Shown here one piece after another: positions 1-37,623 of a stretch of DNA of 37,630 nt. Each line of letters begins with the position of its first letter. Position 1 is the first letter of the stretch. This stretch comes from a virus. The stretch is from the IMG/VR virus record IMGVR_UViG_3300038701_002263, positions 1 to 37,630 of that record. The stretch is one strand, 5' to 3'. The notes below the pieces were generated by a model. It ran no database searches. It was not told where the DNA came from and worked only from the letters and a program-made list of their open reading frames with translations. The translations under genes and the position numbers were made by a program.

Positions 1-141
1 TGAATATAACACCAGGGCGGAAGAATTGGGAATTCGGCGGAATTGACCGAAAAATCAACGAGTTGCGAGGAGGATGCAGAGACGCGGGCAGATTGAGGAA
101 AACCGAGAAAGACGCACCTGGTCGCGGGAGGTTAGGAATTT
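1..141. other. Left transposon end (attL-type terminus) with transposase-binding motifs
   Basis: The sequence opens with TGAATATAACACC, which matches the reverse complement of the right end (TGTATAAAAAACC) at 10 of 13 positions and carries the TG dinucleotide usual for Mu-like elements. A weak AGGGCGGAA at 14-22 sits where the right end has AGGTTCGGA. A perfect 17-bp motif, CGGGAGGTTAGGAATTT, lies at 125-141, overlaps the stop codon of the last leftward gene, and recurs inverted at 37575-37591. I read these as MuA-type binding sites. No gene lies in 1-131. The left flank is outside the window, so a target duplication cannot be checked. Confidence 0.75.
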
Positions 142-16910: not shown

Positions 16911-16912
16911 CG

Positions 16913-18400: not shown

Positions 18401-18495
18401 AAATCTCCAATTTCTCAAAACTCAAAAAAAACGCCCCAAATCACGACTTCCGCTAGTTCGACACTCAAACCGCCTCCAAAGCCGAAAAAACCCCC

Positions 18496-18513
18496 GTTTA
18501 AAGCGATTTAAAC
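18496..18513. promoter_or_regulatory. Dyad in the 142-bp gap before the portal gene
   Basis: GTTTAAA-GCGA-TTTAAAC is a perfect 7-bp inverted repeat. The context AGCGATTTAAACCGGTTC resembles a segment upstream of the first late gene. The rest of 18401-18542 is A/C-rich with no ORF. It may mark a secondary late promoter. Confidence 0.4.
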
Positions 18514-18542
18514 CGGTTCCTTAACTTCTCCTGACCTTTCCA

Positions 18543-21271: not shown

Positions 21272-21276
21272 GGAGA

Positions 21277-21293
21277 GCGGGTTTGCAACCCGC
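21277..21293. repeat. Palindrome after the protease gene
   Basis: GCGGGTT-TGC-AACCCGC, a 7-bp stem 6 nt after the stop codon, similar in build to the palindrome at 35299-35315. The remainder of the 76-bp gap holds CCACTTTAAACCA (21306-21318), which recurs before the capsid gene (21779-21791). Confidence 0.65.
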
Positions 21294-21347
21294 CCCGTGT
21301 AACAACCACTTTAAACCACCTTTTTAAACCTTAGAAAAACCAACTTT

Positions 21348-21731
21348 ATGAAAGCCCAAACTTCAACCCTCATCCCGATGACCGTCGCCACCGACTTCAC
21401 CGGCAACGAGGGAAAATTCATCAAGGCGGACGGCACCCTCGTCGACGGCACCACGGACGTGCCTTATGCCGTTGTTGACTCGGTCAACAGCGCCGACGGC
21501 CTGTCCATCACCGCGGAAGTCCTCGACGGAGCAGCCGGTCTCTCCTTTGTCAAGCTCGGCGGCACCGTTGCTGTCGGTGACTACCTGCTCACCAAAGCCG
21601 ACGCCACCGTCGAAAAATACACCACGCAGACCGACCGCGTCATCGTCGCCCGCGCCGCCGAAGCCGGTGACGCCGACGAACTCGTCCGCGCCTGTCTCAT
21701 CAGCCCGACCGACCAGCCAGCCGCGTCCTAA
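21348..21731 (+). CDS. DUF2190-like capsid decoration protein
   Basis: 127 aa, beta-rich: TSTLIPMTVATDFTGNEGKF, PYAVVDSVNSADGLSITAEV, SFVKLGGTVAVGDYLLTKAD, TDRVIVARAAEAGD. This matches the small capsid-stabilising proteins (DUF2190 type) that lie between protease and major capsid genes. Predicted as a head-surface trimer. The leader contains CCACTTTAAACCA, as does that of the capsid gene, hinting at shared expression control of two abundant proteins. Confidence 0.75.
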   Translation: MKAQTSTLIPMTVATDFTGNEGKFIKADGTLVDGTTDVPYAVVDSVNSADGLSITAEVLDGAAGLSFVKLGGTVAVGDYLLTKADATVEKYTTQTDRVIVARAAEAGDADELVRACLISPTDQPAAS

Positions 21732-21798
21732 CCTGACAGGAACACAAACACACTGACTGGAACCCGTATAAACACACACCACTTTAAACCATCCAAAA

Positions 21799-22875: not shown

Positions 22876-22911
22876 CCCGCCACCACCACTCGCTGCCAAC
22901 ATGCACCACCC

Positions 22912-22968
22912 GGAGCGGGAGCCGTCCGAAGGTTTCCCTTGTTTTTCCCCGAAGACAGCTCCCGCTCC
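22912..22968. repeat. Long-loop inverted repeat after the capsid gene
   Basis: GGAGCGGGAGC (22912-22922) and GCTCCCGCTCC (22958-22968) are perfect 11-bp arms with a 35-nt loop, resembling the REP stem. No T-tract follows. The 113-bp gap (22876-22988) has nothing else obvious; the structure could tune capsid mRNA decay or partial termination. Confidence 0.6.
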
Positions 22969-22988
22969 ACCTCTTTGAAAGTCCGATC

Positions 22989-23201
22989 ATGAACCACGCC
23001 ATCGCCGAGCTCACCATCCGCCGGGAAATCAACGAGACCAACGCCGTCCTCGAAAAAGACCCGGAACAAAAAAAACTCAACATCGCCATCGCCGCCAGTT
23101 GTGCCAAAGCCATCCGCGTCCTGGAAGACATCGAGCGACGATCCGCCGAACCCGAGCCGCCCCACGGCGAGGTCACAACCCTGCCGGAGTCTTCCCGCTG
23201 A
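22989..23201 (+). CDS. Small hypothetical protein
   Basis: 70 aa, MNHAIAELTIRREINETNAV, then KKLNIAIAASCAKAIRVLED, two helices of coiled-coil character and a Pro/Glu-rich tail. No family recognised. It sits between capsid and connector genes, where small connector-associated proteins are usual. Its stop codon TGA is contributed by the following heptamer array. Confidence 0.5.
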   Translation: MNHAIAELTIRREINETNAVLEKDPEQKKLNIAIAASCAKAIRVLEDIERRSAEPEPPHGEVTTLPESSR

Positions 23202-23225
23202 AAACTGAAAACTGAAAACTTTAAA
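23198..23225 (+). repeat. Heptamer array before the DUF1320-like gene
   Basis: Three CTGAAAA units and one CTTTAAA, contiguous, ending 5 nt before the ATG at 23231. Confidence 0.9.
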
Positions 23226-23230
23226 CTCCA

Positions 23231-23692
23231 ATGTGGATACCTTTCACAGAAGCCGAAGCGCTGACCGAACTCGCCGGCCCCGAGCTGGAATCCATCCTCG
23301 CCGCCGCGCTCGATGACACCCAGACGGCCTCCGGTCTCCTCGCCAAGCACACCACGCCCGTCGTCCGCATGATCCGCGGCTATGTCGCCGCCAACACGGA
23401 AAACCGCCTGCACGAGGAGGCGGAATACATCCCCGACGAGCTCGTCATCGCCGCCGGCCCGCTCATCATGCGCAGCATCATCACCCGCATTCCGACGATG
23501 CGACTCAGCGACGCCCGGAAGGACGAGGTCGAGTCCGCCGAAAAACTCCTGCGGGATGTCGCCGCCGGAAAAATGGCCGTCGCCCAGCCCGACAGCGATG
23601 AGGAGGCCGAGGAGATCCTAAAAACCCCGCAAGGCCCCGCCGTCACCGGACGCACCCGCCAATTCACCCGAACCCAGCAAAACGGAATCTAA
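23231..23692 (+). CDS. DUF1320-like head-tail connector (Mu gp36-like)
   Basis: 153 aa. The helical profile (SILAAALDDTQTASGLLAKH, VVRMIRGYVAANTENRLHEE, PDELVIAAGPLIMRSIITRI, SDARKDEVESAEKLLRDVAA, GKMAVAQPD) is that of gp36/DUF1320 adaptor proteins that extend the portal. The C-terminal tail is variable and basic. Position directly after the capsid block agrees with this. Confidence 0.7.
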   Translation: MWIPFTEAEALTELAGPELESILAAALDDTQTASGLLAKHTTPVVRMIRGYVAANTENRLHEEAEYIPDELVIAAGPLIMRSIITRIPTMRLSDARKDEVESAEKLLRDVAAGKMAVAQPDSDEEAEEILKTPQGPAVTGRTRQFTRTQQNGI

Positions 23693-23697
23693 AAACC

Positions 23698-23934
23698 ATG
23701 GCCTACGGAGATCAAAAAAAATACCGCTCCCGCCTCAACCTGTCCTTCCCGGAAAGTGACGACAAGAAGCGCTTCCTCGACTGGTTCCTGGAGCCCGACG
23801 AGGAACACCCCGACCGCGCCGGCGCCATCGCCGACTTCATCGAGCACCAGGCCGACAACGGCGGAGCCATCTACGACATGGAACGCGGATCTAAATCCGA
23901 CAACCAAAACGTCGACATCTACTTTGAAGACTAA
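23698..23934 (+). CDS. Small hypothetical head-tail region protein
   Basis: 78 aa, acidic: YGDQKKYRSRLNLSFPESDD, KRFLDWFLEPDEEHPDRAGA, IADFIEHQADNG, ending NVDIYFED. Not recognised. The leader ends AAAAACC-ATG. Its stop lies inside the first codons of the next gene, which begins at a TTG 11 bp earlier, so the two are coupled. Confidence 0.5.
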   Translation: MAYGDQKKYRSRLNLSFPESDDKKRFLDWFLEPDEEHPDRAGAIADFIEHQADNGGAIYDMERGSKSDNQNVDIYFED

Positions 23935-24283
23935 CACCCAGACACCAGACGCCCTTTCCCCGGAAGAGTTCCACCTCATCGAGTGGCTCCGGAAGATCGC
24001 GCACCGCTGGCAGGACAACGGCCTGCTGCCATCCTTTAAGATCCGCGCCGCCGCCACCATGCTCCGCATGCACTACCTGGCCGCCTGCCTCGGGCGGGAG
24101 GATCTGCCGCCCGTCCCGTCGGATGCCGTCCCGCTCCTCACCGAGTTCGGCCAAATGATCCACGACCAGGGCGCGGCCCTGACACCCATCCAAAGAATCG
24201 GCTGCCTGCTCTACCTGGAGAATACCCTCGAACAAATCCTCCGGGAGAAACCCGAATCCCCGAATTCCGAAGCACGAACATAA
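23924..24283 (+). CDS. Hypothetical connector-region protein with TTG start
   Basis: 119 aa from TTG-AAG-ACT (KTNTQTPDALSPEEFHLIEW). No ATG is available upstream without replacing the preceding gene's frame. Helical: LRKIAHRWQDNGLLPSFKIR, MLRMHYLAACLGREDLPPVP, LTEFGQMIHDQGAALTPIQR, GCLLYLENTLEQIL. The tail (REKPESPNSEART) is encoded by an AATCCGA-type heptamer stretch. Function unknown. The start context is shared with the next three head-tail genes. Confidence 0.55.
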   Translation: MKTNTQTPDALSPEEFHLIEWLRKIAHRWQDNGLLPSFKIRAAATMLRMHYLAACLGREDLPPVPSDAVPLLTEFGQMIHDQGAALTPIQRIGCLLYLENTLEQILREKPESPNSEART

Positions 24284-24300
24284 CCACCGTGGTGCGGGCG

Positions 24301-24335
24301 CTGAAAACTGCCAACTGAAAACTGCCAACTGAAAA
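24301..24335 (+). repeat. Five-unit heptamer array containing the presumed CTG start
   Basis: CTGAAAA, CTGCCAA, CTGAAAA, CTGCCAA, CTGAAAA in strict succession. The first unit places a TGA in the downstream gene's frame; the last unit's CTG is the first in-frame codon suitable for initiation close to the conserved protein sequence. Confidence 0.9.
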
Positions 24336-25240
24336 CTCAAACCACAGCCGCCTTCGACACAGCCGCCGCCCGCGGCATCCTGCCGAGCACGCTCTCCAGC
24401 CGGGAGCAGCGGGAGGCCTTTTCCGCCGACCTCCGCGCCCGCTCCGTCTTTCTGGCGCGCGGCAGTCACGCCGACTTCGTTTCCGCGCTCAAAAAAGCGG
24501 TCGAGGCCATCGTCTCCGGACAGAGCGACCGCGCCACCCGGCGCTGGCTCCTCGGTGAGCTGCTCGTCGATCTCGGCTACACCGCCGAGAACTCTTTCGG
24601 CCGGCCGGAAGACGCCGCCGTCCCGCCCGCTGTCGAGGGCTCCTTCCAGGATCTCCGCAGCCGCCGCCGGCTGGACTTCATCCTCGACACTCAGGCGGAG
24701 ATCCTGCGCGGCCACACCTACCGGGAGGCCGGCATGACCGCCGCCGAAATGTTCACCTTTCCCGCCTGGGAACTCATCCGCCGCTTCGACCGCAACGAGC
24801 CGCGCGACTGGATCGAACGCTGGCAGAGCGTCGGCGGAGAAATCCGCGAGGACGGCCGCATGATCGCTTTAAAGGTCGACCTCATCTGGGACGAGCTCGG
24901 CAGCAGCGGAAACTTCGACGACGCCCTCGACGTCAATCACGCACCCTTCGCGTTCAACTCCGGCATGCGCCAGCGCGCCGTCCCCCGGGAAGAATGCCTC
25001 CGCCTCGGCATGGAACTGCCGGAAACCCGAAGCCCGAATCCCGAAACCCGAATTTCAGACCCGCAGGAACTCCCGCCCGCCGTCCTGTCCGTCAAAAAAA
25101 TGGACGACGCCGTGCGGAAAAAACTCGCCACCCTCACCGAACTCAAAGACGGCCGCGCCGTCTACAAATCCAAACTCCAGCAACGCCTCGCCGACCTCCG
25201 GGCCCGGAAGGTGGAAAGGGAGGTGGCCGCAGCATCATGA
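24329..25240 (+). CDS. gpF/gp30-like minor head morphogenesis protein with CTG start
   Basis: 303 aa if started at CTG 24329. The frame is open from the TGA at 24302 but has no ATG, GTG or TTG before codon 136, although the upstream part is clearly coding (TTAAFDTAAARGILPSTLSS, then HADFVSALKKAVEAIVSGQS). The later part has the minor head protein pattern: SRRRLDFILDTQAEILRGHT, FPAWELIRRFDRNEPRDWIE, RWQSVGGEIREDGRMIALK, DLIWDEL and HAPFAFNSGMRQRAV. In Mu the F gene lies between portal and protease; here it follows the capsid. Residues about 232-243 are coded by a heptamer insertion. Confidence 0.7.
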   Translation: MKTQTTAAFDTAAARGILPSTLSSREQREAFSADLRARSVFLARGSHADFVSALKKAVEAIVSGQSDRATRRWLLGELLVDLGYTAENSFGRPEDAAVPPAVEGSFQDLRSRRRLDFILDTQAEILRGHTYREAGMTAAEMFTFPAWELIRRFDRNEPRDWIERWQSVGGEIREDGRMIALKVDLIWDELGSSGNFDDALDVNHAPFAFNSGMRQRAVPREECLRLGMELPETRSPNPETRISDPQELPPAVLSVKKMDDAVRKKLATLTELKDGRAVYKSKLQQRLADLRARKVEREVAAAS

Positions 25241-25428
25241 CCCTCACCCTCAACCTCTGGACAATCCTCGCCGCGCTCCTCTACCTGCAGGTCGGCGTCA
25301 TGCTGCTGCTCTGGGTGCAGGCGCAGACCGGCACCCGCGGCACCCTCAAAGCCCTGCGCATCGTCCTTTTCTGGATTCCGGAACTCCTCCTCTACCTCGC
25401 CGCCGCCATCGGCCCGCGCGAGTGGTAG
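25237..25428 (+). CDS. Small two-segment membrane protein
   Basis: 63 aa, MTLTLNLWTILAALLYLQVG and IVLFWIPELLLYLAAAIGPR, two hydrophobic segments with a short basic loop (TGTRGTLKALR). The ATG overlaps the previous stop (ATGA). A membrane protein amid head-tail genes is unusual; a holin-like or lysis-timing role is possible, not shown. Confidence 0.5.
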   Translation: MTLTLNLWTILAALLYLQVGVMLLLWVQAQTGTRGTLKALRIVLFWIPELLLYLAAAIGPREW

Positions 25429-25433
25429 CCCGT

Positions 25434-25468
25434 CTGAAAACTGCCAACTGAAAACTTCAAACTGAAAA
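25434..25468 (+). repeat. Heptamer array with in-frame CTG
   Basis: CTGAAAA, CTGCCAA, CTGAAAA, CTTCAAA, CTGAAAA. The last unit begins at the proposed start of the next gene (CTG-AAA-ACT). Confidence 0.9.
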
Positions 25469-26094
25469 CTCTAACCATCACCGCCAGCATCCGCGAGACA
25501 CCCGTCCTCGCCATCATGGCCGCCGGTTACACCGGCGAGCGGCGCGCCGGTCTGCACGCGCACATCGCGGCGCGGGAGCGGGAGCTTTTCCGCGAGCACC
25601 TCACGCTGCTGGCCGCCACACGCCACCGCACGGCGGACAGGCTCGGCGCATCCCCTACCGGATTTCTGGCCGGCGCGGCGGATTCCGTCGAGGCCCGTTC
25701 GGACGCTGCCGCCGCCGACATCCTCATCGGTGTGCCCGGGCTTGGACGCGCCTTTGCCGACCTGCACATCCGCGCGCGGAACGCCGGAGCCCTCACCATC
25801 CCCGTCCATGGAGACGCCTACGGCCGCCGGGCCGGAGAATTCGACGACCTCTTCATCTGGCGCGCCAAAAAAGAAGACGGAGACAGCGGCAGTTCCAAAG
25901 CCTTCCTCGCCCGGAAAGGCCCCGGCGACACGCTGGTGCTCATGTATGTCCTCCTCAAATCCGTCATCATCCCGCAAGACCGCAGCCTGCTCCCGAGCGA
26001 CGAGGAGATCACCCTCACCGCCGAGATCGGAGCCCTCGATTACCAGGAGCGTCTCGAAGCCGAGGCCGCCGCGCAGCGAAGCTCTGAAAACTAA
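25462..26094 (+). CDS. Putative virion morphogenesis/neck protein (Mu gpG-like position)
   Basis: 210 aa from CTG 25462, or 192 aa from ATG 25516. The segment before the ATG (KTLTITASIRETPVLAIMAA) continues the strand-plus-helix start usual in such proteins, so I prefer the CTG. Later features: AHIAARERELFREHLTLLAA, ILIGVPGLGRAFADLHIRAR, GALTIPVHGDAYGRRAGEFD and VLMYVLLKSVIIPQDRSLLP. The A-Y-G-R-R and V-x-x-P-Q-D motifs resemble neck or tail-completion proteins. Its stop (TAA) is formed by a CTAAAAA heptamer variant. Confidence 0.6.
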   Translation: MKTLTITASIRETPVLAIMAAGYTGERRAGLHAHIAARERELFREHLTLLAATRHRTADRLGASPTGFLAGAADSVEARSDAAAADILIGVPGLGRAFADLHIRARNAGALTIPVHGDAYGRRAGEFDDLFIWRAKKEDGDSGSSKAFLARKGPGDTLVLMYVLLKSVIIPQDRSLLPSDEEITLTAEIGALDYQERLEAEAAAQRSSEN

Positions 26095-26111
26095 AAACTG
26101 AAAACTTTAAA
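26084..26111 (+). repeat. Heptamer array between two tail-region genes
   Basis: CTGAAAA, CTAAAAA, CTGAAAA, CTTTAAA, then CGTC-ATG. The array overlaps the 3' end of the upstream gene and fills the intergenic gap. Confidence 0.88.
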
Positions 26112-26115
26112 CGTC

Positions 26116-26343
26116 ATGTTAAAGCGCCTCAAACAACTCTTTAAAAAGCCCGACGAAGCCCCGCCCGAGATCCGCGAGGTCGTCGAGCAGGCCCTCGCCG
26201 AACCGGCACCCGGCAAGCGCCGGAAATTCACCTGCCGCAACCGCCGCTGCCGGAAAGTCCTGGCCACCGACCCGCGCGGCCCCGTCCCGAAATGCTGCGG
26301 CCTCCGCATGACCTACAGCGGCCGCATCACCGTCTCCGCCTGA
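26116..26343 (+). CDS. Small zinc-ribbon-like protein
   Basis: 75 aa. A basic N-terminus (MLKRLKQLFKKPDEAPPEI) precedes a Cys-rich unit: KFTCRNRRCRKVLATDPRG, VPKCCGLRMTYSGRI, with CxxxxC and CC pairs that could bind one zinc ion. Mu encodes a zinc-binding translational regulator (Com), but this protein is not clearly similar and lies elsewhere. Nucleic-acid binding is a guess. Confidence 0.5.
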   Translation: MLKRLKQLFKKPDEAPPEIREVVEQALAEPAPGKRRKFTCRNRRCRKVLATDPRGPVPKCCGLRMTYSGRITVSA

Positions 26344-26344
26344 T

Positions 26345-26365
26345 CTGAAAACTGAAAACTGAAAA
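26345..26365 (+). repeat. CTGAAAA array before the tail terminator gene
   Basis: Three exact CTGAAAA units followed by CTTCAAC and the TTG start. The last CTG is in frame with the gene. Confidence 0.9.
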
Positions 26366-26373
26366 CTTCAACT

Positions 26374-26853
26374 TTGTCCCAATACAACGACATCAAAGAC
26401 GCCCTCGTCACCGCCATCCAGGCGCTGACGCCGTTCTCCGACTCCACGAAAGTCACCGTCCGCAATGACAAGGCGCGCATCCTCACCAGTGAGATCGCCA
26501 CCATGATCGCAAAAGTCAACACGCACGCCGTCCTTGTCACCCTCCTGGCCGGGGAAAACATCACGCAAAACGGCAGCGTCATCGACCGGCCCATCGACGT
26601 CCTTTTCCCCGTCGTTACCATCTGGAGCAATCCGCTCGTCATGGGAGCCAACTACACCCCGCAGCTCGACCTCGTGGAGACCCTGCGCGCCCCCGCCGGC
26701 CCCGGCGACGGCAGCGGCGGCCTGCACGGCCTCACACTTCCCGGCTTCCAGAAAACCTCCCACGATCAGCGCCTCAACTACCAGCGCTGGGCCGAGACAC
26801 CCGACCCGGAATTCCTCGTCCACGCGGTGACCTTCCGCATGGAACTCGAATAA
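26374..26853 (+). CDS. Putative tail terminator (Mu gp37/DUF1834-like)
   Basis: 159 aa from TTG (CTG 26359 is also in frame). YNDIKDALVTAIQALTPFSD, KARILTSEIATMIAKVNTHA, VLVTLLAGENI, IDVLFPVVTIWSNPL and LVETLRAPAGPGDGSGGLHG, ending HAVTFRMELE, follow the helix-then-strands layout of DUF1834 proteins that cap the tail tube. It lies just before the tail tube gene, as expected. Confidence 0.65.
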   Translation: MSQYNDIKDALVTAIQALTPFSDSTKVTVRNDKARILTSEIATMIAKVNTHAVLVTLLAGENITQNGSVIDRPIDVLFPVVTIWSNPLVMGANYTPQLDLVETLRAPAGPGDGSGGLHGLTLPGFQKTSHDQRLNYQRWAETPDPEFLVHAVTFRMELE

Positions 26854-26897
26854 CTGACAATACCTAAAAAATTCATCCACTAACCAACTAGAAAACC

Positions 26898-27440
26898 ATG
26901 GCATCCAACTACGCATCCGTTATCGGAGCTCACGCTTACTTCCTGCGCGACGGCCAGACCGTCGACTCCGTCACCGTCTCCTCATCCGTCAAACCCGACG
27001 TCGATCCGGAGAGCAACTGGACGGATGATTCCCTCGGGATCATCAACAGCTTCCAGCCCATCGTCAATCAGCAGACCGAGGAAATCTGGGGCTCCTCACC
27101 CGCCATCATGGAGCGCCAGGACATCATCGTCAAGCGCAAGCAGTTCGACTGCGTGCTCGGCCTGGAACAGGTCAATCACAACGTCTTCGACATGCTGCTC
27201 GGAGCCACCGCCAACGCCGCCTCCTTCGTCCCCGGCGGACAAAACACCCCGGTGAAAGGCTGGCTGAAAGTCCAGCTCTACCGCCAGCCCTCCAGCCTCA
27301 TCAGCGTCTTTGACCTCTGGTGCGTCCTGGAGACACAGGGCAATCCGACCATGACCAAAGGCCAGGTCTTCCGCCCGTCCATCATCGCCAAAGGCATGAG
27401 CAACGCGCTCAACACCGGTCTGAAACAAAACCTGTCCTGA
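26898..27440 (+). CDS. Major tail tube protein
   Basis: 180 aa. ASVIGAHAYFLRDGQTVDSV, GIINSFQPIVNQQTEEIWGS, VKRKQFDCVLGLEQVNHNVF, GWLKVQLYRQPSSLISVFDL, beta-rich as in siphovirus tail tubes. It lies between tail terminator and tail surface genes. There is no sheath gene in the window, so the tail should be non-contractile. Leader contains one CTGACAA and ends GAAAACC-ATG. Confidence 0.65.
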   Translation: MASNYASVIGAHAYFLRDGQTVDSVTVSSSVKPDVDPESNWTDDSLGIINSFQPIVNQQTEEIWGSSPAIMERQDIIVKRKQFDCVLGLEQVNHNVFDMLLGATANAASFVPGGQNTPVKGWLKVQLYRQPSSLISVFDLWCVLETQGNPTMTKGQVFRPSIIAKGMSNALNTGLKQNLS

Positions 27441-27441
27441 T

Positions 27442-27469
27442 CTGAAAACTGACAACTGAAAACTGACAA
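27442..27469 (+). repeat. Heptamer array before the LRR-like gene
   Basis: CTGAAAA, CTGACAA, CTGAAAA, CTGACAA in alternation, starting just after the tail tube stop codon and ending 12 nt before the next ATG. Confidence 0.9.
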
Positions 27470-27481
27470 CTCTCCCGTAAA

Positions 27482-28078
27482 ATGCCTGACGATCCTGAAA
27501 TCCTCACCGCGCCCGGCACCGCGGCCTCCCCCTCCGCTCCGGAGGATCTGGCCGCGCCCGGCACCGCGGCCTCCCCCTCCGATCCGGAGGATCTGGCCGC
27601 GCCCGCGGCGGCCGCGTCTCCCGATCCGCCGGAAAGTCTCGGCAGCGTGTCGGCATCCGCCACCGATGACAACGTCGCCGTGACCATCACTGTGACCATC
27701 GCCAACCCCGCCGTCGGTCAGGCATCGGACGCGGCCGATGAGTTGCGCTTAACCGAAGACATGGGAGCGGCCACCACCTTTGCCGTGCCGGATGTCGTCA
27801 CCTACCACTTCCGGGACTGGGTCGGCATCAATACCCTGAACTTGCCGGACGCCGCGCGTGTCGTCCGTATTACCAACTGCCCGCCCGCCCTGTCGGAAGT
27901 GTTCCTCAGGGGCACGGCCATGAATGAGGCCGCCGTCCTCGATTTCATCGGGGATCTGCCCGACCGCAGCGCCACCACCGCTGGGGAGATTGATTTCTCA
28001 GAATCCGTCTCCTTTTCCGGGGGCGTCACCACCGCCATCCAGGACGCCCTGGACGCCAAAAATTGGGATCTCCCATAA
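27482..28078 (+). CDS. Tail-associated protein: Pro/Ala tandem repeats plus LRR-like part
   Basis: 198 aa. Residues 10-54 are tandem 15-residue repeats (APGTAASPSAPEDLA type), forming a flexible linker. A beta segment (SVSASATDDNVAVTITVTIA) follows, then FRDWVGINTLNLPDAARVVR, ITNCPPALSEVFLRGT and AVLDFIGDLPD, which resemble two or three leucine-rich-repeat turns. No known phage family. It lies upstream of a protease and a lectin-like gene in the tail block and is likely a surface or fibre component. Confidence 0.5.
   Translation: MPDDPEILTAPGTAASPSAPEDLAAPGTAASPSDPEDLAAPAAAASPDPPESLGSVSASATDDNVAVTITVTIANPAVGQASDAADELRLTEDMGAATTFAVPDVVTYHFRDWVGINTLNLPDAARVVRITNCPPALSEVFLRGTAMNEAAVLDFIGDLPDRSATTAGEIDFSESVSFSGGVTTAIQDALDAKNWDLP
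27509..27643 (+). repeat. 45-bp in-frame tandem repeat, three copies
   Basis: Copies at 27509-27553 and 27554-27598 are almost identical (15 codons, APGTAASPS[AD]PEDLA); a third, diverged copy (APAAAASPDPPESLG) follows to 27643. Copy number could vary by slippage. Confidence 0.85.
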
Positions 28079-28108
28079 TAAAACCCCACCACACCATCCT
28101 GACCTAAG

Positions 28109-29395
28109 ATGCCCGCCGCACCCGAGATCATCACCAATCCCAGACCCGCCGGCCACGCGCCGGATGAAACCCCGTCGGACGGCCTCGTCCACATCGTGGA
28201 TCTGGACAATGCCGCCGCGCTCGCCATCGAGCTGCAGGTCGTCCCCGCCGGGCAGGAGCCCTCGCCCAATCCCGTCGCCTCCGTCACCACCACCCAGGAC
28301 AAACGCACCCGCGCCTACGACGCCGGCACCGCCCTGCTGCAGCATTACCGCTGCTACGTCACCGTGACAGGGTCGACCACCGGCACCATCACTTGTGCCT
28401 CCTCGGATGAGTCCGTCTTCACCTGCGCCATCGACGGCGATCCGCTGATCGTCAATCTCACGCACATCGCCGACGGCACCGCGACCCTCAGCGTGACCAA
28501 TACCTCCGGCGAGGACACCTTCACGGCCAAATACCGCATCCAGTTCCGCAGCACCGCCCCGTCCGTGGCCGACAACTACATCGGCGGCACCGCCGGCAGC
28601 GCCCGCCGCGGAATCGAGGACTATCTGGACATTCTCGACGATCCCGACCCGCCGTCCCGCTGGGCGCTTTTTTCCGCCGTCAATCACACTAGCCCGGCCT
28701 ACACGCGCAAGACATCCATCTCCGCGACGGTCGATCTATCCGGCATCTCCCCCTGGAACTCGACCGGCGGGGAATACCGGGGAGGCACCGCCATCACGCC
28801 GCGGCATGTCGTCTGGGCCGCGCACTACGACATCGGCACCGGGGCGACGATGCGCTTTGTCCAGATGGACAACACCGTCGTCGACCGCACGATCACAGCC
28901 AAGACACAGATCGCGGGCACGGACATCATGGTCGGCAAGCTGTCCTCCGACCTGCCCGCCGGCATCACTCCCGTGCAGGTGCTGCCCGCCGACTGGGCGG
29001 ACTTTTTCCCGACCGGCTTGCAGGGCTGTTGTGCCTTTTCCACCGCCGGCGGCTCGGAGCGCTTTTTTGTGAAAGAAATCGCCACCGCCGGGGGCACCTT
29101 CTCCACCTTCCAGCCCCCCGGCGAGCTGCCTTTCGGTGATCCGTCATCCCTCGACTTCCTGGCGGATTACGACCGCGGCGTCATCGCCGGAGACAGCGGC
29201 AACCCGGTCTTCCTCCTCGGGGATGACACCAACCTCGACGAGATCCCCATCCTGATCTCTCACTGGTTCACCGCCGCCGGCGGGCCGTTTTATCCCGGCC
29301 TGCGCGATGAGCTGGAGGCCGCGATCACGGCGCTCGGCGCGGAAAGCCACACCCTCACCGATGCCGATCTGCAGGACTTCACCGACTTTTCTTAA
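28109..29395 (+). CDS. Trypsin-like serine protease fused to Ig-like domain, tail region
   Basis: 428 aa. Residues about 20-150 are beta-rich and Ig/BIG-like (YRCYVTVTGSTTGTITCASS, ADGTATLSVTNTSGEDTFTA). Residues about 185-395 read as a chymotrypsin fold: RGGTAITPRHVVWAAHYDIG with His239, GTDIMVGKL with Asp272, and GVIAGDSGNPVFLL with Ser363, followed by ILISHWF. Order and spacing of the triad fit family S1. There is no export signal, as expected for a virion protein. It could process a tail component or degrade host surface protein; neither is shown. Neighbours are LRR-like and lectin-like tail genes. Confidence 0.75.
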   Translation: MPAAPEIITNPRPAGHAPDETPSDGLVHIVDLDNAAALAIELQVVPAGQEPSPNPVASVTTTQDKRTRAYDAGTALLQHYRCYVTVTGSTTGTITCASSDESVFTCAIDGDPLIVNLTHIADGTATLSVTNTSGEDTFTAKYRIQFRSTAPSVADNYIGGTAGSARRGIEDYLDILDDPDPPSRWALFSAVNHTSPAYTRKTSISATVDLSGISPWNSTGGEYRGGTAITPRHVVWAAHYDIGTGATMRFVQMDNTVVDRTITAKTQIAGTDIMVGKLSSDLPAGITPVQVLPADWADFFPTGLQGCCAFSTAGGSERFFVKEIATAGGTFSTFQPPGELPFGDPSSLDFLADYDRGVIAGDSGNPVFLLGDDTNLDEIPILISHWFTAAGGPFYPGLRDELEAAITALGAESHTLTDADLQDFTDFS

Positions 29396-29407
29396 AATCG
29401 TAAATCA

Positions 29408-30541
29408 ATGGCCGTTAAATCCACCTTTAAAGTCGTCATCGGCGCGGTCACCTTGATCGACTTCACGGACTACGACGCGCTCGTGGTACCGTCCTTTTCC
29501 CAGGGCGTCAACCCCGGCTTAAAATTCCGCCAGGCATGGGCGACGCCCTTTCCGGAAAAAACAGCCGGGGGAAAATACACGCTCTCCGTCATGGCGCGGC
29601 GGAAGAACACCGCGGCCAGCACCTCGGTGAAAGCCTGCTTCGACGCGACCATCGACCCGCCGAAAACCCAGCTCACCTGCACCATTTACAGCAGCGACGG
29701 CGGCGAGTGGGAATGTGAGGATGCCGCAGTGATCAGCAGCATCGACCCGCGTGTCGATCCCGCCGATCCGCGCTGGTGCACGCTGTCCTTTGTCATCCAG
29801 TGCGGAGAGATCACCGAGACCACCGCGCCAACGGTGCCATCAGATCCGGCCGCGCCGTCCGCGCCGTCAAGTGTGGTGCCTGTCTATGCGTCCACCGAGG
29901 AACCGGAGGAAACGGCCGCCGAACAATTGCTCGCCCTCGGCACCTGTGAGCTGCTCTGGATGCCGGACAGCGTCGTCTCCACGGGCAATGTCCTGACGGA
30001 GTGGACGGATCTTTCCGGCAATGACAATCACGGCGTCCCGGTGGCCGGCACAAACGGGCTGAAGCCGGTCGCCCTGGCTGGTGGTGGCGTAGCGCTGCGT
30101 CAGGATCACTACATCGACTTCACCACGCGCCTGACAAACATCCGCACTGTCGTGATGCGGCTCGCCCTCGGTTCCCGCCCGGTGGACGGCACGGAGGCCC
30201 GTCCGCTCCTCGGAGATAATACCGTCTATGATTTTCACGGCTCAGAGGGAGCGACTGGCCCGGTGTTTTCCTCCTTTGCCGCGACGGCGGTAAAGAACGG
30301 CACCCTGCGGATCGACGGCAGCGCGGAAACCGGCACCACCTACATTTTCCCGGCGGATCAGGACGGCCCGGTATCTCTGACTCTCGTCACCACAGGAGCG
30401 GTCGCCGCCAGCCGCCTGTCTCGCGAGCGCACGAACGCCAAAAAGTCCTGGGAAGGCAACGTCCTCTGCCTGGCTATTTTCTCCGACGCCCTGTCCGGCG
30501 CCGACATCCTCGCTGCCGAAGCCATCCTCGACACCCTCTAA
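29408..30541 (+). CDS. Tail protein with C-terminal LamG-like lectin domain
   Basis: 377 aa. The N-terminal 130 residues (STFKVVIGAVTLIDFTDYDA, GKYTLSVMARRKNTAAST, TIYSSDGGEWECEDAAV) are beta-rich and resemble a tail-tube-like attachment unit. A Pro/Ala/Ser linker (about 140-170) leads to a concanavalin/LamG-like domain: CELLWMPDSVVSTGNVLTEW, TDLSGNDNHGVPV, ALRQDHYIDF and a final GADILAAEAILDTL. Such domains bind sugars, so a role in receptor binding is plausible. It lies 12 bp downstream of the protease gene. Confidence 0.6.
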   Translation: MAVKSTFKVVIGAVTLIDFTDYDALVVPSFSQGVNPGLKFRQAWATPFPEKTAGGKYTLSVMARRKNTAASTSVKACFDATIDPPKTQLTCTIYSSDGGEWECEDAAVISSIDPRVDPADPRWCTLSFVIQCGEITETTAPTVPSDPAAPSAPSSVVPVYASTEEPEETAAEQLLALGTCELLWMPDSVVSTGNVLTEWTDLSGNDNHGVPVAGTNGLKPVALAGGGVALRQDHYIDFTTRLTNIRTVVMRLALGSRPVDGTEARPLLGDNTVYDFHGSEGATGPVFSSFAATAVKNGTLRIDGSAETGTTYIFPADQDGPVSLTLVTTGAVAASRLSRERTNAKKSWEGNVLCLAIFSDALSGADILAAEAILDTL

Positions 30542-30575
30542 AAAAAACAGACGTGCTGCGCCCGCGCTATCCCAA

Positions 30576-30603
30576 CTGCCAACTGAAAACTTTAAACTGA
30601 AAA
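30576..30603 (+). repeat. Heptamer array before the tape measure gene
   Basis: CTGCCAA, CTGAAAA, CTTTAAA, CTGAAAA, ending 4 nt before the TTG start. Confidence 0.9.
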
Positions 30604-30607
30604 CTCC

Positions 30608-32141: not shown

Positions 32142-33002
32142 ATGACCCATGCAGCAAAAAACCAAAAAAACATCGGCAGTCTCTTCGCCGGCATCGGCGG
32201 CTTCGACCTCGGCTTCGAGCGGGCGGGCTGGTCAACCGAATGGGCGGTCGAAATTGACCCGGCAAAGCGGGCTGTCCTTGGTGACCGATTTCCTGCCGCC
32301 CGGCTCTTTGAAGACATCAATACAGTCGACGTCTCGCAGCTTTCGGGCGTCGATGCGGTCGTCGGCGGTTTCCCCTGCCAGGACATCAGCATCATGGGCG
32401 CGTGTCGTAAAGGCGGCGTCCCCGGCCTCAAAGGTGCCCGCTCAGGACTCTTTTACCGGGCCATGGATCTCATCCGGGAAATTCGGCCCGAATGGGTGGT
32501 GCTTGAAAACGTCGCGGCACTGCTCCATAGCAATGATAGCGAAGACCTGCAGGCAGTCGTCTCAACCCTTGCCGACAGCGGGTATGTGGGATACTGGCGG
32601 GTGCTTAATGCTCAATATTTCGGAGTCCCCCAAAACCGCCGCCGCGTTTTCCTGGTCGCGGGTCTTGGAAGACAACCCTCCATTGACTTCCTGGCTGATG
32701 CCGCACCAGTGGACAGCCTACCTTGCGCGCTTGGCCCGCTCAGCCAGCCACGGCCGGCGGATTTTTTCGCTTCCAATACTCTTCTCGCCACCAGCACGCG
32801 AACCCGGATCGATATTGGCACTGCCGTTTTCGTGGCTCAGGAGGACGGACGGGATCAGATGGTTGAGCGGCAGCGAGCGTCTGAGCTACATGGGATTCCC
32901 CTCGGACTGGATGCGCCCAACTTTGTCCAGGCTCACGGAGCGGGAAATGCTGTGGTGCCAGCGATAGCGCAATGGATCGCGGAAATCTTAAACCGCTCTT
33001 AA
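32142..33002 (+). CDS. DNA cytosine-5 methyltransferase
   Basis: 286 aa, short but complete by motifs: I SLFAGIGGFDLGFE (13-26), IV GGFPCQDIS with catalytic Cys79, VI VLENV (120-124), VIII QNRRRVFLV (164-172), and IX-X AHGAGNAVVPAIAQWI near the C-terminus. The target recognition region (about 175-250) is short. It methylates C5 of cytosine in a specific site, probably to protect phage DNA. No matching endonuclease is adjacent. It is wedged between tape measure and tail hub genes with 7- and 10-bp gaps. Confidence 0.9.
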   Translation: MTHAAKNQKNIGSLFAGIGGFDLGFERAGWSTEWAVEIDPAKRAVLGDRFPAARLFEDINTVDVSQLSGVDAVVGGFPCQDISIMGACRKGGVPGLKGARSGLFYRAMDLIREIRPEWVVLENVAALLHSNDSEDLQAVVSTLADSGYVGYWRVLNAQYFGVPQNRRRVFLVAGLGRQPSIDFLADAAPVDSLPCALGPLSQPRPADFFASNTLLATSTRTRIDIGTAVFVAQEDGRDQMVERQRASELHGIPLGLDAPNFVQAHGAGNAVVPAIAQWIAEILNRS

Positions 33003-33012: not shown

Positions 33013-35229
33013 ATGCCCGACACCTGGACAATCACCAACAACACGCAGACAGGCACCTCCGACCTGGCCGATATCTGCGCCCGGAACCTGCGCTGCCAGT
33101 TCCATTCTCTCAGCGCGGACACGTTCGAGTTCGACTGCGCCGGCGCGGAGATCGATTACGATGGCAGCCTCCCCGGTGCCTTTCCTTTGGCGGATGATGA
33201 CAACGTCTCCATCAAATTCGGCGCCACCCAGGTCTTCCGGGGAAATGCCCGCGTCCGTCGCATCGGCGGGATCGACGGCGAGCGCATCCGCGTCGTCATC
33301 GACGGCCCCTGGAAGGAACTGGAGGAACGCACCGCCTACCAGCCGTGGAAAGTCCTCACCGAGTCCACCGTGCCGGAAGACCCGGCGGAGGACGTGGAAC
33401 TCGTCTTTGAAGACATCGAGCAGATGCGCTTCATCCTCTACCATGACCACACCACCGGCGACCGCCTGAGCACCACCCAGCAGATCCAGCAGATCGTCCA
33501 GCGCGCCGCCGGCGACGGCGCGGCCCTGGCATCCGGCACTTACTTCACCGGCTTCTCCCCGACCTTTGAAGAGGTGAAAAATGTCATGATGTCCGAGCTG
33601 ATCATCCAGATCCTGCGGAACCATCCCGATGCCGTGGCCTGGTTCGACCACTCCGCCAGCGCCCCGACTTTCAACTGCGGAAAGGCCGCCCAGCTCGCCG
33701 AGTGGGAGGTGGATCTCTCCACCGTCGATCTCAAGAACAACGACATCGTCGCGCGGAAAGACCTGCAGGCCGCCGGCGTGCAGATTAACTTCGACCAGCC
33801 CGTCACCGTGGACGGAAAAGTCTACATCGGCGCACCCGTCGAGCAGGTCGCCGGCAGCGGCGTCGGGGCCGGCCGCGTGGTCGCCGCCCAGATCGAGCTG
33901 GCCGGCACCCGCGTCACCCTCATGCGCCAGGAGGTGGAGACGGAGACCTATCCGGACGCCGTCGACACCGAGACGCCCGACCCGGTCGAGTGGTGGCAGG
34001 AGCGCCTGGACAAATGGTTCCGCGACATCCCCGCCGCCGACCTCAAAATGATCTCCCACAGCGTCGACCCGGATGACGACGCCGCCGACATCTCCGACCT
34101 GACCAAGGAACTCGTGCAAGGCACCATCACCGACTGGATGGGAGACCGCAACGGCGAGACCGTCCTGGCCGAGCCCGTCACCGCCACCGCCGTGCTCTCC
34201 TACACCGGCACCGACGAACTCATCGCCGCCAGGTTCGATGAGTTTAACCAGATCCAGGCGAATTTTTCCTTCATCGCCACCAACGCAGTGACGAAAGAAT
34301 ACACCGGCATCGACAGCTTCGAGCAGCCGGAGGAAATCCCCTCCGGCATGGCCAGCGCGCTCTACGCCGGATGCGGCCACCTCCACTACGAGGGCGAGTT
34401 TTCCATCCAGAACGTCTACGAACCGCCGACCGTGCTCGGCCTCGGCCGCCGCGTCAACATGACAGGCGGCCGCAGCGAGTGGGAAAGCATGGACGGCATG
34501 GTCACCGACGTGAGTTGGGACATCTCCGCCGGCGTGCAGACCGTGCGCTTCGGCCCGCCCGGACACTACGGCATTCATGACTTCATCGAGATGATGCGCA
34601 GCCGGCGCGGCCCCACCGCCAGCTACAGTGTCAAAGACCGCGAGGAAGGCGAGGCACTGGGCAGTCTCACCAGCGTGCGCGGCGGAGCCATCCAGCCGCG
34701 GCACAACAGCTCCCTGGTCAACGGCAGCGGCAGCGTGCCCTTTACCCCCATCATCGCCGGCAATGCCGATGACGGCTGGGAACTCGGCTGCCGGGGAGGA
34801 CAGGTCGCCGCCATGGATGACGACGGCTCCATCACCAAGCTCAACGACGTCGCCCCGGACACCGGCATCACCCACTTCTGGATTCAGATCGATATGGACG
34901 CGCTCGGCGGGGAGGAAAACTACCGCACGATGAACAATGCCCTGCTCGACAGCGGCACCGAGTGGCCCACCGGCGGCGGGGATGACACCCAATATTGGCG
35001 CCTCTTCTCCGTCGACTTCTCCGGCAGCAGCCCCGTCGTCACCACCGAGTGGAAGGGCAGCATCTGCTGGAGCCAGGCCGTCCTCCTGGAGCTCGCCGCC
35101 ATCGACTTCATCGACTGCGACGGCTCCACGCAGGTCAGCTACGATCCGTATGGCGAGGACATCGAGGTCGACGTGGGCGACTGCTCCGGAGACAGCGGCG
35201 GAGACGGAGGCAGCGGCGGCAGCGCCTGA
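33013..35229 (+). CDS. Tail hub/central tail protein (distal tail or fibre-hub)
   Basis: 738 aa. The N-terminal half (DTWTITNNTQTGTSDLADIC, DDDNVSIKFGATQVFRGNAR, RIRVVIDGPWKELEERTAYQ, TQQIQQIVQRA, NHPDAVAWFDHSA) resembles hub proteins of siphophages, in which gp27-like barrels are built from repeated units. The centre has VLGLGRRVNMTGGRSEWESM and VSWDISAGVQTVRFGPPGHY, typical of hub C-terminal domains. The last 200 residues vary and end in a Gly/Ser/Asp tail (GDSGGDGGSGGSA). Large size and position after the tape measure support this assignment. Confidence 0.65.
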   Translation: MPDTWTITNNTQTGTSDLADICARNLRCQFHSLSADTFEFDCAGAEIDYDGSLPGAFPLADDDNVSIKFGATQVFRGNARVRRIGGIDGERIRVVIDGPWKELEERTAYQPWKVLTESTVPEDPAEDVELVFEDIEQMRFILYHDHTTGDRLSTTQQIQQIVQRAAGDGAALASGTYFTGFSPTFEEVKNVMMSELIIQILRNHPDAVAWFDHSASAPTFNCGKAAQLAEWEVDLSTVDLKNNDIVARKDLQAAGVQINFDQPVTVDGKVYIGAPVEQVAGSGVGAGRVVAAQIELAGTRVTLMRQEVETETYPDAVDTETPDPVEWWQERLDKWFRDIPAADLKMISHSVDPDDDAADISDLTKELVQGTITDWMGDRNGETVLAEPVTATAVLSYTGTDELIAARFDEFNQIQANFSFIATNAVTKEYTGIDSFEQPEEIPSGMASALYAGCGHLHYEGEFSIQNVYEPPTVLGLGRRVNMTGGRSEWESMDGMVTDVSWDISAGVQTVRFGPPGHYGIHDFIEMMRSRRGPTASYSVKDREEGEALGSLTSVRGGAIQPRHNSSLVNGSGSVPFTPIIAGNADDGWELGCRGGQVAAMDDDGSITKLNDVAPDTGITHFWIQIDMDALGGEENYRTMNNALLDSGTEWPTGGGDDTQYWRLFSVDFSGSSPVVTTEWKGSICWSQAVLLELAAIDFIDCDGSTQVSYDPYGEDIEVDVGDCSGDSGGDGGSGGSA

Positions 35230-35574: not shown

Positions 35575-36834
35575 ATGACCTCCCAAAAATCCACCTGGTC
35601 ACAGCACGGACAGGACACGGTCATCCTGTCCATTCTCCGTGCCGTCCGGGGCGGGAAAATGCGCGGCGGATACTTCGTCGAGGCAGGCGCTCTCGACGGC
35701 CTCCACATGAGCAACACACGCTCCCTCTGCGACCTCCCCGGAAAGTGGCGGGGAACGCTCATCGAGCCGCTCCCGGACGCCGCCGCCAAGGCCCGGAAAA
35801 ACCGCCCGGAAAGCACCGTCTACCAGCTCGCACTGACGGACGGAAAAGACAGCGGCAATGCGCCCTTTTTATCCATCCCCGGCGCGCCCGCTTTGAGCGG
35901 ATTCTCCGACACCTTCACCGGCGGCCACAATCGCCAAAACGGGGAGGAAATCTTCGTCGGAAAACGCACCCTGAAAGAGGTTCTCGACCTCGCCAAAGCC
36001 CCGCCCCTGATCGACGTGATTTCCATCGACGTGGAAGGCGCGGAAACCGCCGTCCTCGACGGCTTCGACTGGAGCCGAAAAGTGCGCGTCTGGTGCATCG
36101 AGCACAACGGCAAAAAAGCCCACCGCGCGGCCATCCATGAGAGCCTCCAGGAGAACGGCTATCGGCGCGTCGCCCGCGTCGCCGCAGACGACATTTTCAT
36201 CCCCGAGGAAGACGCCGCAAAAGTCCGCCGGCCCTACCTGATCCGCGTGCCAAAAACCGGCTCCATCTCCATGGCGGCCGCACTGCCTGACGACATCCGG
36301 AAGCTCCCCACCATGAGCCAGCGGAAACACTCCACCACAGCCGACCGCGCCGTGCTCAAAGACCTGGAAAAAATGGGCGGCCGGCCGTTCGCTTTGGTCT
36401 TCGGTTTTGTCCGCAACCCCTACGACCGCGCCGCCTCCCTCTATCACTGGATACGCAAAAACGCGGACACCCGCAACCACCTCGATGACCTCTGCGCCGG
36501 CCTCGTCGAGATGGCCCTGCAGACCGACTGCAGCACCTTCTGGAGCCGCATCGACATCCCCGCTCTGGCCGCCCGCTCCCGCATGTTCGCGCGGCAGGTC
36601 GATTTCCTACAGGGCGGCAAGTTCGAGGTCGATTTCATAGGCCGCTGGGAGCGACTGGAAAAGGACTGGAAACGCCTCCGGAAAATGTGCTCCTCCGGCA
36701 CCATCGGCGACCTCCCGCACCGCAACGCCAGCGGCCGCACCCGCCCTTGGCAGGACGACCTGAACACCGCTGCCCGCGTCGCCATCCAGACCCACTATTT
36801 GGCGGATTTCGAGGCCTATGCTTACGATTTCTAA
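35575..36834 (+). CDS. FkbM-type methyltransferase fused to a sulfotransferase
   Basis: 419 aa with two enzyme domains. Residues 1-215: WSQHGQDTVIL, GGYFVEAGALDGLHMSNT (AdoMet loop), GTLIEPLP, DVISIDVEGAETAVLDGFDW and VWCIEHNG are hallmarks of FkbM methyltransferases. Residues 219-419: YLIRVPKTGSISM (5'-phosphosulfate loop of PAPS enzymes), FGFVRNPYDRAASLYHW (3'-phosphate site), FIGRWERLEKDWKRL and LPHRNASGR, ending THYLADFEAYAYDF, match membrane-type carbohydrate sulfotransferases (Sulfotransfer_2). It could O-methylate and sulfate a glycan, either on host surface or virion. The 3' end overlaps the glycosyltransferase gene by 17 bp. Confidence 0.82.
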   Translation: MTSQKSTWSQHGQDTVILSILRAVRGGKMRGGYFVEAGALDGLHMSNTRSLCDLPGKWRGTLIEPLPDAAAKARKNRPESTVYQLALTDGKDSGNAPFLSIPGAPALSGFSDTFTGGHNRQNGEEIFVGKRTLKEVLDLAKAPPLIDVISIDVEGAETAVLDGFDWSRKVRVWCIEHNGKKAHRAAIHESLQENGYRRVARVAADDIFIPEEDAAKVRRPYLIRVPKTGSISMAAALPDDIRKLPTMSQRKHSTTADRAVLKDLEKMGGRPFALVFGFVRNPYDRAASLYHWIRKNADTRNHLDDLCAGLVEMALQTDCSTFWSRIDIPALAARSRMFARQVDFLQGGKFEVDFIGRWERLEKDWKRLRKMCSSGTIGDLPHRNASGRTRPWQDDLNTAARVAIQTHYLADFEAYAYDF

Positions 36835-37576
36835 AAACTCGCCACTGGCCGAAGTCATCCGCGACCACACCGGCCCCGGCCTGCTCCCTCCCGTCCAGAT
36901 CGAGGGCCTCTGCGGACTCGGCGATCACATCTTCCTCATCGGGGCCATCCGCTGGCTCGCCAGCGTCTCCGAGCGCGTCATCCTGGACGTCCAGGACTTC
37001 CAGCTCCCTGACCTCTCCTACGCCTACCGGGATGTCCCCAACGTCCACCTGCGAGGCAAACCAACAAAGCTCATCGAGGGACTGCTCGCCACGCCCGACC
37101 TACCCTATTTAGCCATGCCCATGGGCGCCGGCGGCACCATCGAACACTGGACGCACCAGGCCCTCGGTCTGCCCGCTGTCCTCTCCTGGACGAACTACCA
37201 CATCGCGCGCGATCGCACCACTGAAGAAGCCCTCCGCCAATCCCTGGGGCTCCAACCAGGTGACCGCTACATCGTCATCCACGACGATCAAAAACGCGGT
37301 TTTAGCATCAATAAAAGCCGGATTAACCCCCGTTTCGGCGTCCGGACAATCCACCCCGGCGGCAGCCGCGGCCAATCCCGCTCCTTCCCGATCTTCGCTT
37401 GGATCGGCATCCTCGAAGCAGCCCAAGAGATCCACCTCATCGAGTCAGCATTCGCCGCCCTCATCGACCGCTCCCCCTCCATCACCGCCCCCATCCACCT
37501 CCACCGCTACGCCCGCCGCCCCATCCCCAAATGGAGAGCCGCCCGCCACCGAAAAGACTGGCAAATCCACCGCTAA
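36818..37576 (+). CDS. GT9-like glycosyltransferase
   Basis: 252 aa. PVQIEGLCGLGDHIFLIGAI with a G-x-G-D motif near the N-terminus, then RYIVIHDDQKRGFSIN and FPIFAWIGILEAAQEIHLIE, SAFAALID, follow the two-Rossmann pattern of heptosyltransferase-like (GT9/GT-B) proteins, the last block being the nucleotide-sugar binding side. The N-terminal donor/acceptor split is shorter than usual (about 250 against 320-350 aa). It is translationally coupled to the FkbM-sulfotransferase gene, so both may act on the same glycan. Its stop lies at the edge of the right-end 17-bp motif. Confidence 0.65.
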   Translation: MLTISKNSPLAEVIRDHTGPGLLPPVQIEGLCGLGDHIFLIGAIRWLASVSERVILDVQDFQLPDLSYAYRDVPNVHLRGKPTKLIEGLLATPDLPYLAMPMGAGGTIEHWTHQALGLPAVLSWTNYHIARDRTTEEALRQSLGLQPGDRYIVIHDDQKRGFSINKSRINPRFGVRTIHPGGSRGQSRSFPIFAWIGILEAAQEIHLIESAFAALIDRSPSITAPIHLHRYARRPIPKWRAARHRKDWQIHR

Positions 37577-37623
37577 ATTCCTAACCTCCCGATTTCCACT
37601 CCGAACCTGCGGTTTTTTATACA
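37574..37623. other. Right transposon end with two spaced binding motifs
   Basis: Read inward from 37623, the end is TGTATAAAAAACC, then AGGTTCGGA (37600-37608) and, exactly 21 bp further, AGGTTAGGA (37579-37587) within the 17-bp motif shared with the left end. Two copies in phase with two helical turns are typical of transposase-bound ends such as R1-R2 of Mu. Confidence 0.75.

What the first reader, a model, noticed from the sequence alone, without database searches (positions are those of the whole stretch)
35575..37576. FkbM methyltransferase-sulfotransferase fusion plus glycosyltransferase at the right end
PAPS-binding loops (VPKTGSISM, FVRNPYDRAASLY) and a C-terminal LPHRNASGR follow a complete FkbM domain in one chain; a GT9-like gene overlaps it by 17 bp. 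In Mu this end carries the invertible tail-fibre segment and mom. Inference: the phage modifies a host surface glycan (methylation and sulfation) to convert the lysogen or block superinfection, or decorates its own virion.
Basis: partly seen in the sequence, partly recalled or inferred. Interest (0 to 1): 0.67.

Follow-up and report, generated by a model that had tools for sequence, protein, structure and literature searches.

The report
Phage methyl-/sulfotransferase fusion with glycosyltransferase
At the right end of a Mu/B3-like transposable phage, probably of a Verrucomicrobiota host, sits a two-gene cargo: one protein that joins two normally separate sugar-decorating enzymes (an O-methyltransferase and a sulfotransferase) and an overlapping glycosyltransferase; both enzyme families are common in phages, but this fusion was found nowhere else searched.

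Summary
ORF 35575-36834 (419 aa) is a complete FkbM methyltransferase (aa 37-197, Pfam E 1e-14) joined with almost no linker to a complete Sulfotransfer_2 domain (aa 224-418, E 5e-9), with PAPS-binding residues intact. The next gene (36818-37576) overlaps it by 17 bp; it has no Pfam, PHROG or NCBIfam hit, but its AlphaFold model matches GT9 heptosyltransferases (best E 4e-6). Its phage homologues sit in glycan clusters, twice directly overlapping an FkbM gene. The record is a transposable phage: Portal_Mu, B3-like terminase, 17-bp inverted repeat near both ends. In related prophages the tail gene before this pair is the last phage gene, so the pair is right-end cargo. The two halves occur as separate genes in phages and about 1,200 bacterial genomes searched; of 164 sulfotransferase and 166 FkbM reading frames examined, only this one joins them. 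Phage sulfotransferases fused to other domains do occur. Most likely a bifunctional glycan-capping enzyme working with a sugar transferase. The target (host surface or virion) is not shown; the position in line with the late operon gives no support for lysogenic conversion. New variant of a known kind.

The parts
35575..36834 (+). Fused gene: FkbM methyltransferase + Sulfotransfer_2, 419 aa
   Evidence: Open frame; both Pfam domains over cut-off; one codon-usage frame throughout
35683..36165 (+). FkbM (Methyltransf_21) domain, aa 37-197
   Evidence: Pfam E 1.3e-14, TIGR01444 over cut-off; residues invariant in 13 homologues present, e.g. G32, G38, D152, E154, G155, E157
36211..36234 (+). Domain junction, aa 213-220, almost no linker
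   Evidence: Stand-alone FkbM matches end at query aa 168-239, mostly 200-215, and stand-alone sulfotransferase matches start at aa 217 or later
36244..36828 (+). Sulfotransfer_2 domain, aa 224-418
   Evidence: Pfam E 4.9e-9; modelled at pLDDT about 73-96 per block; the first 33 PDB matches are sulfotransferases, though at weak E-values of 0.008 to 0.2
36247..36273 (+). VPKTGSISM, first PAPS-binding loop (aa 225-233)
   Evidence: K227 and S232 conserved in 90% or more of 39 viral sulfotransferases
36406..36444 (+). FVRNPYDRAASLY, second PAPS-binding loop (aa 278-290)
   Evidence: V279, R280, P282 invariant and S288 97% in 39 viral sulfotransferases
36818..37576 (+). GT9-like glycosyltransferase gene, 252 aa, overlaps the fusion by 17 bp
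   Evidence: No profile hit; AlphaFold pLDDT 78.5, pTM 0.78; best PDB match 3tov GT9 E 4.2e-6, then TibC, WaaC, WaaF
33013..35229 (+). Preceding tail gene (hub-like, by position); last phage gene in related prophages
   Evidence: Homologues in L425, L426 and L423 are followed by host-type genes
125..141 (+). Left copy of the 17-bp terminal inverted repeat CGGGAGGTTAGGAATTT
   Evidence: Perfect inverted match to 37575-37591
37575..37591 (-). Right copy of the terminal inverted repeat; overlaps the stop codon of the glycosyltransferase
37606..37623 (-). Probable right phage terminus (5'-TGTATAAAA... reading inwards, 7 bp of other DNA beyond)
   Evidence: Sequence; 5'-TGT ends with host DNA beyond are described for Mu-like phages (PMC4378225)

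Best explanation
The pair is accessory cargo at the right end of a B3/Mu-like transposable phage and encodes a small glycan-tailoring unit. The GT9-like enzyme adds a sugar from a host nucleotide-sugar. The fused enzyme caps the glycan with a methyl group (SAM, FkbM half) and a sulfate (PAPS, sulfotransferase half), so both caps are put on by one polypeptide. The genes are probably transcribed late with the tail operon. The most likely target is a surface glycan of the infected cell, where capping would hinder re-adsorption to debris and superinfection; a virion glycan is the main alternative. Shown: domain content, intact cofactor residues, single reading frame, predicted GT9 fold, cargo position. 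Inferred: enzymatic activity, order of steps, timing and target.
For: Both domains over curated cut-offs with cofactor residues kept. The sulfotransferase half models well and matches only sulfotransferases at the top, heparan sulfate sulfotransferases among them. The second gene folds like GT9/heptosyltransferases. Its homologues lie in glycan clusters of cyanophages, and 10 of 49 viral loci of that family also hold an FkbM gene, against 1 of 160 terminase loci. FkbM genes overlap such GT genes in L370 and L375. The pair follows what is the last phage gene in relatives and is in the phage's own codon usage.
Against: No activity, acceptor or host is known. The donor sugar is not made by the phage as far as scanned. 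The host-surface target is a choice by plausibility, not shown. A single metagenomic record, no second fused copy.
Confidence: 0.6

Rival explanations
1. Virion decoration: the enzymes glycosylate, methylate and sulfate a head or tail protein of the phage itself; GT9-fold relatives such as TibC glycosylate proteins.
For: Codirectional with and directly after the structural operon, no separate promoter found. The fold matches include the protein heptosyltransferase TibC. Similar genes sit inside structural modules elsewhere: a sulfotransferase two genes before the DNA-stabilizing protein in CBW1004C-Prop1, FkbM and a glycosyltransferase-like gene in the structural region of G004.
Against: No acceptor protein identified; insertion in late operons may only reflect tolerated sites.
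Confidence: 0.3
2. Lysogenic conversion: the prophage expresses the genes in the silent state and changes the host's surface glycan.
For: Temperate transposable phage; O-antigen modification by prophages is well established in general (own knowledge).
Against: No own promoter found, same strand as the late operon; no foreign composition. The scan does not cover unusual promoters.
Confidence: 0.15
3. DNA hypermodification: the enzymes act on modified bases, together with the C5-cytosine methylase at 32142-33002.
For: A DNA methylase gene lies nearby; base glycosylation and sulfation systems have been proposed in phages (cited in PMC10829341).
Against: No TET/JBP-type oxygenase or base-hypermodification enzyme among the ORFs scanned; the glycosyltransferase fold is GT9, whose homologues lie in nucleotide-sugar clusters.
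Confidence: 0.04
4. The fusion is an artefact: two separate genes joined by an assembly error.
For: Seen in one metagenomic record only; no other fused copy.
Against: One open frame, equal codon usage in both halves, and no usable internal start for a separate sulfotransferase; both a stop and a start would have to be lost exactly at the domain boundary.
Confidence: 0.05

Closest known systems
FkbM family methyltransferases (Pfam PF05050, TIGR01444)
   Same: Complete domain, all residues invariant in 13 homologues kept; common in phages (at least 497 viral stretches)
   Different: Usually a stand-alone protein of about 190-300 aa; here the first half of a fusion
Sulfotransfer_2 family (Pfam PF03567), PHROG 3347
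   Same: Complete domain with both PAPS loops; at least 185 related viral stretches, and phage examples in DLP_6 and CBW1004C-Prop1
   Different: Usually a stand-alone protein of about 180-265 aa; here fused behind FkbM
GT9 / heptosyltransferases (3tov, TibC, WaaC, WaaF)
   Same: Best structural matches of the second gene product, TM 0.53-0.57 to the two 3tov chains by query length
   Different: Shorter (252 aa against 303-390), sequence identity about 11%, no GT9 profile hit
Pseudomonas phage B3 and other transposable (Mu-like) phages
   Same: Terminase about 51% identical over 67% of its length, Portal_Mu, terminal inverted repeat, probable 5'-TGT right end
   Different: Early genes on the left run leftwards from about 8.4 kb, a DnaB-like helicase is present, right-end glycan cargo; host probably Verrucomicrobiota
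Viral sulfotransferases joined to other domains (L197, L228, L245, L260)
   Same: Sulfotransferase domain in one chain with another domain, some of which read like glycosyltransferases (by eye, not scanned)
   Different: None has an FkbM partner

Membership tests
FkbM methyltransferase | Score over the curated PF05050 and TIGR01444 cut-offs | tested here: met
   55.1 against 22.7 bits; 45.7 against 37.7 bits
FkbM methyltransferase | Conserved GxFVExGAxDG and SxDVEGxE motifs | tested here: met
   Alignment A2
FkbM methyltransferase | SAM-dependent O-methylation | not testable with these tools
   Needs an assay
Sulfotransfer_2 | Score over the curated PF03567 cut-off | tested here: met
   37.1 against 22 bits
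Sulfotransfer_2 | Both PAPS-binding loops with conserved K, S, R, S | tested here: met
   K227, S232, R280, S288
Sulfotransfer_2 | Sulfotransferase fold | tested here: met
   Well-modelled half; top 33 PDB matches are sulfotransferases, E-values weak
GT9 | GT9-type GT-B fold | tested here: met
   The first 24 PDB matches are GT9/heptosyltransferases, the best at E 4.2e-6
GT9 | Match to a GT9 or any curated family profile | tested here: not met
   No Pfam, PHROG or NCBIfam hit; so 'GT9-like', not a member
Transposable (Mu/B3-like) phage | Mu-type head genes and B3-type terminase | tested here: met
   PF06074 150 bits; terminase tblastn
Transposable (Mu/B3-like) phage | Transposase and its ATPase | tested here: inconclusive
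   AAA_22 in 686-1675 (-); the neighbouring 733-aa ORF has no Pfam hit, called transposase by position and reading
Transposable (Mu/B3-like) phage | Repeats near both ends and host DNA beyond a 5'-TG terminus | tested here: inconclusive
   17-bp inverted repeat; right terminus TGT with 7 bp beyond; left terminus not certain
Moron (strict sense) | Own promoter and terminator, foreign composition | tested here: not met
   No promoter-like site, no intergenic terminator-like site; codon usage like the phage core. The report therefore says 'cargo'

The most novel reading that the evidence does not exclude
A single phage polypeptide that installs both a methyl ether and a sulfate ester on one glycan, acting as a two-cap finishing enzyme for a phage-made decoration of the virion or the infected cell surface. 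No such fusion was found among the phages, viral contigs and bacterial genomes searched.
Probability: 0.3. Interest if true: 0.6.

Novelty: new variant of a known kind. Interest (0 to 1): 0.42.

Why it matters
Phage sulfotransferases are frequent in metagenomes but their function is described as unclear (PMC10580990). A fusion to an FkbM methyltransferase next to a GT9-like glycosyltransferase ties the sulfotransferase to glycan capping and gives a compact two-gene unit that can be expressed and assayed. If the target is the virion, it would point to sulfated, methylated phage glycoproteins, for which no report was found in the few paper searches made here.

Tried and rejected
Close relatives of the fusion by peptide patterns in viral contigs and genome contigs: none. 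phmmer against PDB for the fusion and profile searches for each half and for the glycosyltransferase: nothing useful. PF03567 and PF05050 scans of 50 terminase-related viral records: no sulfotransferase (with the caveat that its control genomes did not ring) and one separate FkbM gene. A joint alignment of both halves for structure prediction put the sulfotransferases on the FkbM half; checked and abandoned, so the FkbM half of the model is unreliable (largely pLDDT below 50). Two separate genes misread as one: rejected. DNA hypermodification: no supporting enzymes among the ORFs scanned. The glycosyltransferase as a chance ORF: rejected by its coding signal (0.415 per codon in frame), fold and homologues. 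Heptamer arrays as a marker of close relatives: the viral contigs carrying them share almost no proteins with this phage.

Full report
What is there. The window is a whole virus record of 37,630 bases. ORF 35575-36834 (+) reads 419 aa without a stop. Pfam places Methyltransf_21 (FkbM) at aa 37-197 and Sulfotransfer_2 at aa 224-418, both over their curated cut-offs; NCBIfam agrees on FkbM and PHROGs on both halves.

Is it one chain? Yes, as far as the sequence can show. Both halves have the same frame and the same strong phage-like codon usage. In-frame ATG/GTG/TTG codons near the boundary fall only at aa 170 or earlier, or at aa 225 (inside VPKTG) or later, so a separate sulfotransferase could not start with its first strand intact and without a piece of FkbM. 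Stand-alone FkbM proteins of bacteria and phages end where the window's FkbM half ends, and stand-alone sulfotransferases start where its second half starts. The fusion therefore looks like a clean end-to-end joining of two normal genes. Residues conserved in 39 viral sulfotransferases, including K227, S232, H252, R280, S288, E359, N384 and D411, are kept; several aromatic positions near the C-terminus (392, 395, 396) differ. The residues invariant in 13 FkbM homologues are kept. This speaks against decay.

How rare is the fusion? It was searched in phage records, in viral contigs and GTDB contigs by peptide patterns, and in 388 genomes of the phylum of Cerasicoccus (Verrucomicrobiota), 399 of the phylum of a Gallionella MAG and 386 of the phylum of a MAG labelled Cyanobacteria. 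No match spans both halves. Profiles of each half run over all ORFs in 501 fetched loci gave 164 sulfotransferase and 166 FkbM ORFs; only the window's own is in both lists. Each family is common in phages taken alone: at least 185 related sulfotransferase stretches and 497 FkbM stretches in viral contigs. Sulfotransferase domains joined to other domains do occur in viral contigs (L197, L228, L245, L260), so fusing a phage sulfotransferase is a known theme with a new partner here. That makes it a new variant, not a new kind.

The second gene. It has no family hit. Its phage homologues are in Synechococcus phages Sf-CH8, Sf-CH5 and S-SRM01 and in giant uncultured phages. In S-SRM01 the homologue stands between a gene annotated as NodZ fucosyltransferase and a GT2 gene, with an FkbM gene close by; in Sf-CH8 it lies near heptose and cytidylyltransferase genes. 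With an alignment of 19 sequences, AlphaFold gives pLDDT 78.5 and pTM 0.78; the first 24 PDB matches are all GT9/heptosyltransferases, led by 3tov and TibC. It is GT9-like by fold, but not a member by sequence profile. FkbM and this family overlap directly in two other viral loci (L370, 4 bp; L375, 34 bp), and a third has the reverse order (L326).

The phage. Portal_Mu, a terminase about 51% identical to that of Pseudomonas phage B3, a leftward AAA ATPase beside a 733-aa transposase-like ORF (the transposase call is inference), and a 17-bp perfect inverted repeat at 125-141 and 37575-37591 make it a transposable phage. About 1e-5 such repeats would be expected between two 400-base ends (simple calculation with equal base frequencies). 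The right terminus reads TGTATAAAA inwards with 7 bp beyond, as described for Mu-like phages (PMC4378225). The right repeat overlaps the stop codon of the glycosyltransferase, so the cargo fills the phage almost to its very end. The best terminase relatives in named genomes are mostly Verrucomicrobiota and Victivallales/Lentisphaerae, so the host is probably of that group (inference).

Why cargo. In prophage relatives with a homologue of the tail gene 33013-35229, that gene is the last phage gene: in L426 a MutS-like host gene follows and in L425 a LysM-like and a PurH-like host gene (host-gene names read by eye). L427, L424 and L429 carry other genes in this place. In the window the place holds the fusion and the glycosyltransferase. 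A related phage, G004 (terminase 62% identical), carries a separate FkbM gene and a glycosyltransferase-like gene inside its structural region instead. Cargo of this sort is thus exchanged within the group.

How it most likely works. The GT9-like enzyme would add a sugar from a host nucleotide-sugar, and the fused protein would methylate and sulfate the product. No promoter-like or intergenic terminator-like site was found, and the genes run with the late operon, so late expression is the default inference. Then the plausible targets are the surface of the infected cell and the virion itself. Lysogenic conversion remains possible because promoters of the probable hosts are not covered by the scan. 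DNA modification is unlikely for lack of the necessary partner enzymes among the ORFs scanned.

Limits. The FkbM half was not well modelled. The PF03567 scan of relatives had no ringing control. No activity, substrate, host or second copy is known. The genome searches sampled phyla, not all genomes. The confidences given for the target (host surface, virion, lysogen) overlap with the biochemical reading and need not sum to one.

Noticed in passing
window 3913-6631 (- genes) and 16328-30605 (+ genes): Arrays of the heptamer CTGAAAA/ACTGAAAACT stand just before many genes, in the same orientation relative to the gene on both strands. None occurs in the terminase relatives fetched; 29 stretches of viral contigs carry a three-unit exact array, some several times, but share almost no proteins with this phage. 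Role unknown.
   Followed up: partly
window 28109-29395 (+): 428-aa tail-region ORF with trypsin-like motifs read by eye (WAAHY, GTDIMVG, AGDSGNPVF); no Pfam hit at E 0.1.
   Followed up: no
window 32142-33002 (+): C5-cytosine DNA methylase gene (PF00145) inserted between two tail genes that are neighbours in relatives; its codon usage is unlike the phage core.
   Followed up: partly
window 10382-11767 (+): DnaB-like replicative helicase in a phage that otherwise looks transposable.
   Followed up: no
window 4146-4568 (-): ASCH-domain protein in the leftward early block.
   Followed up: no
L275:12965-13495 (phage CBW1004C-Prop1): A sulfotransferase gene in the structural module, two genes before the DNA-stabilizing protein gene.
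   Followed up: no
L194, L244: Viral loci with several sulfotransferase genes in one stretch (at least four each).
   Followed up: no
L228:5737-7227, L245:5971-7212, L197:5161-6549, L260:2490-3971: Viral sulfotransferases joined in one chain to other domains; the partners read by eye like glycosyltransferases or a glycoside-hydrolase-like domain.
   Followed up: partly
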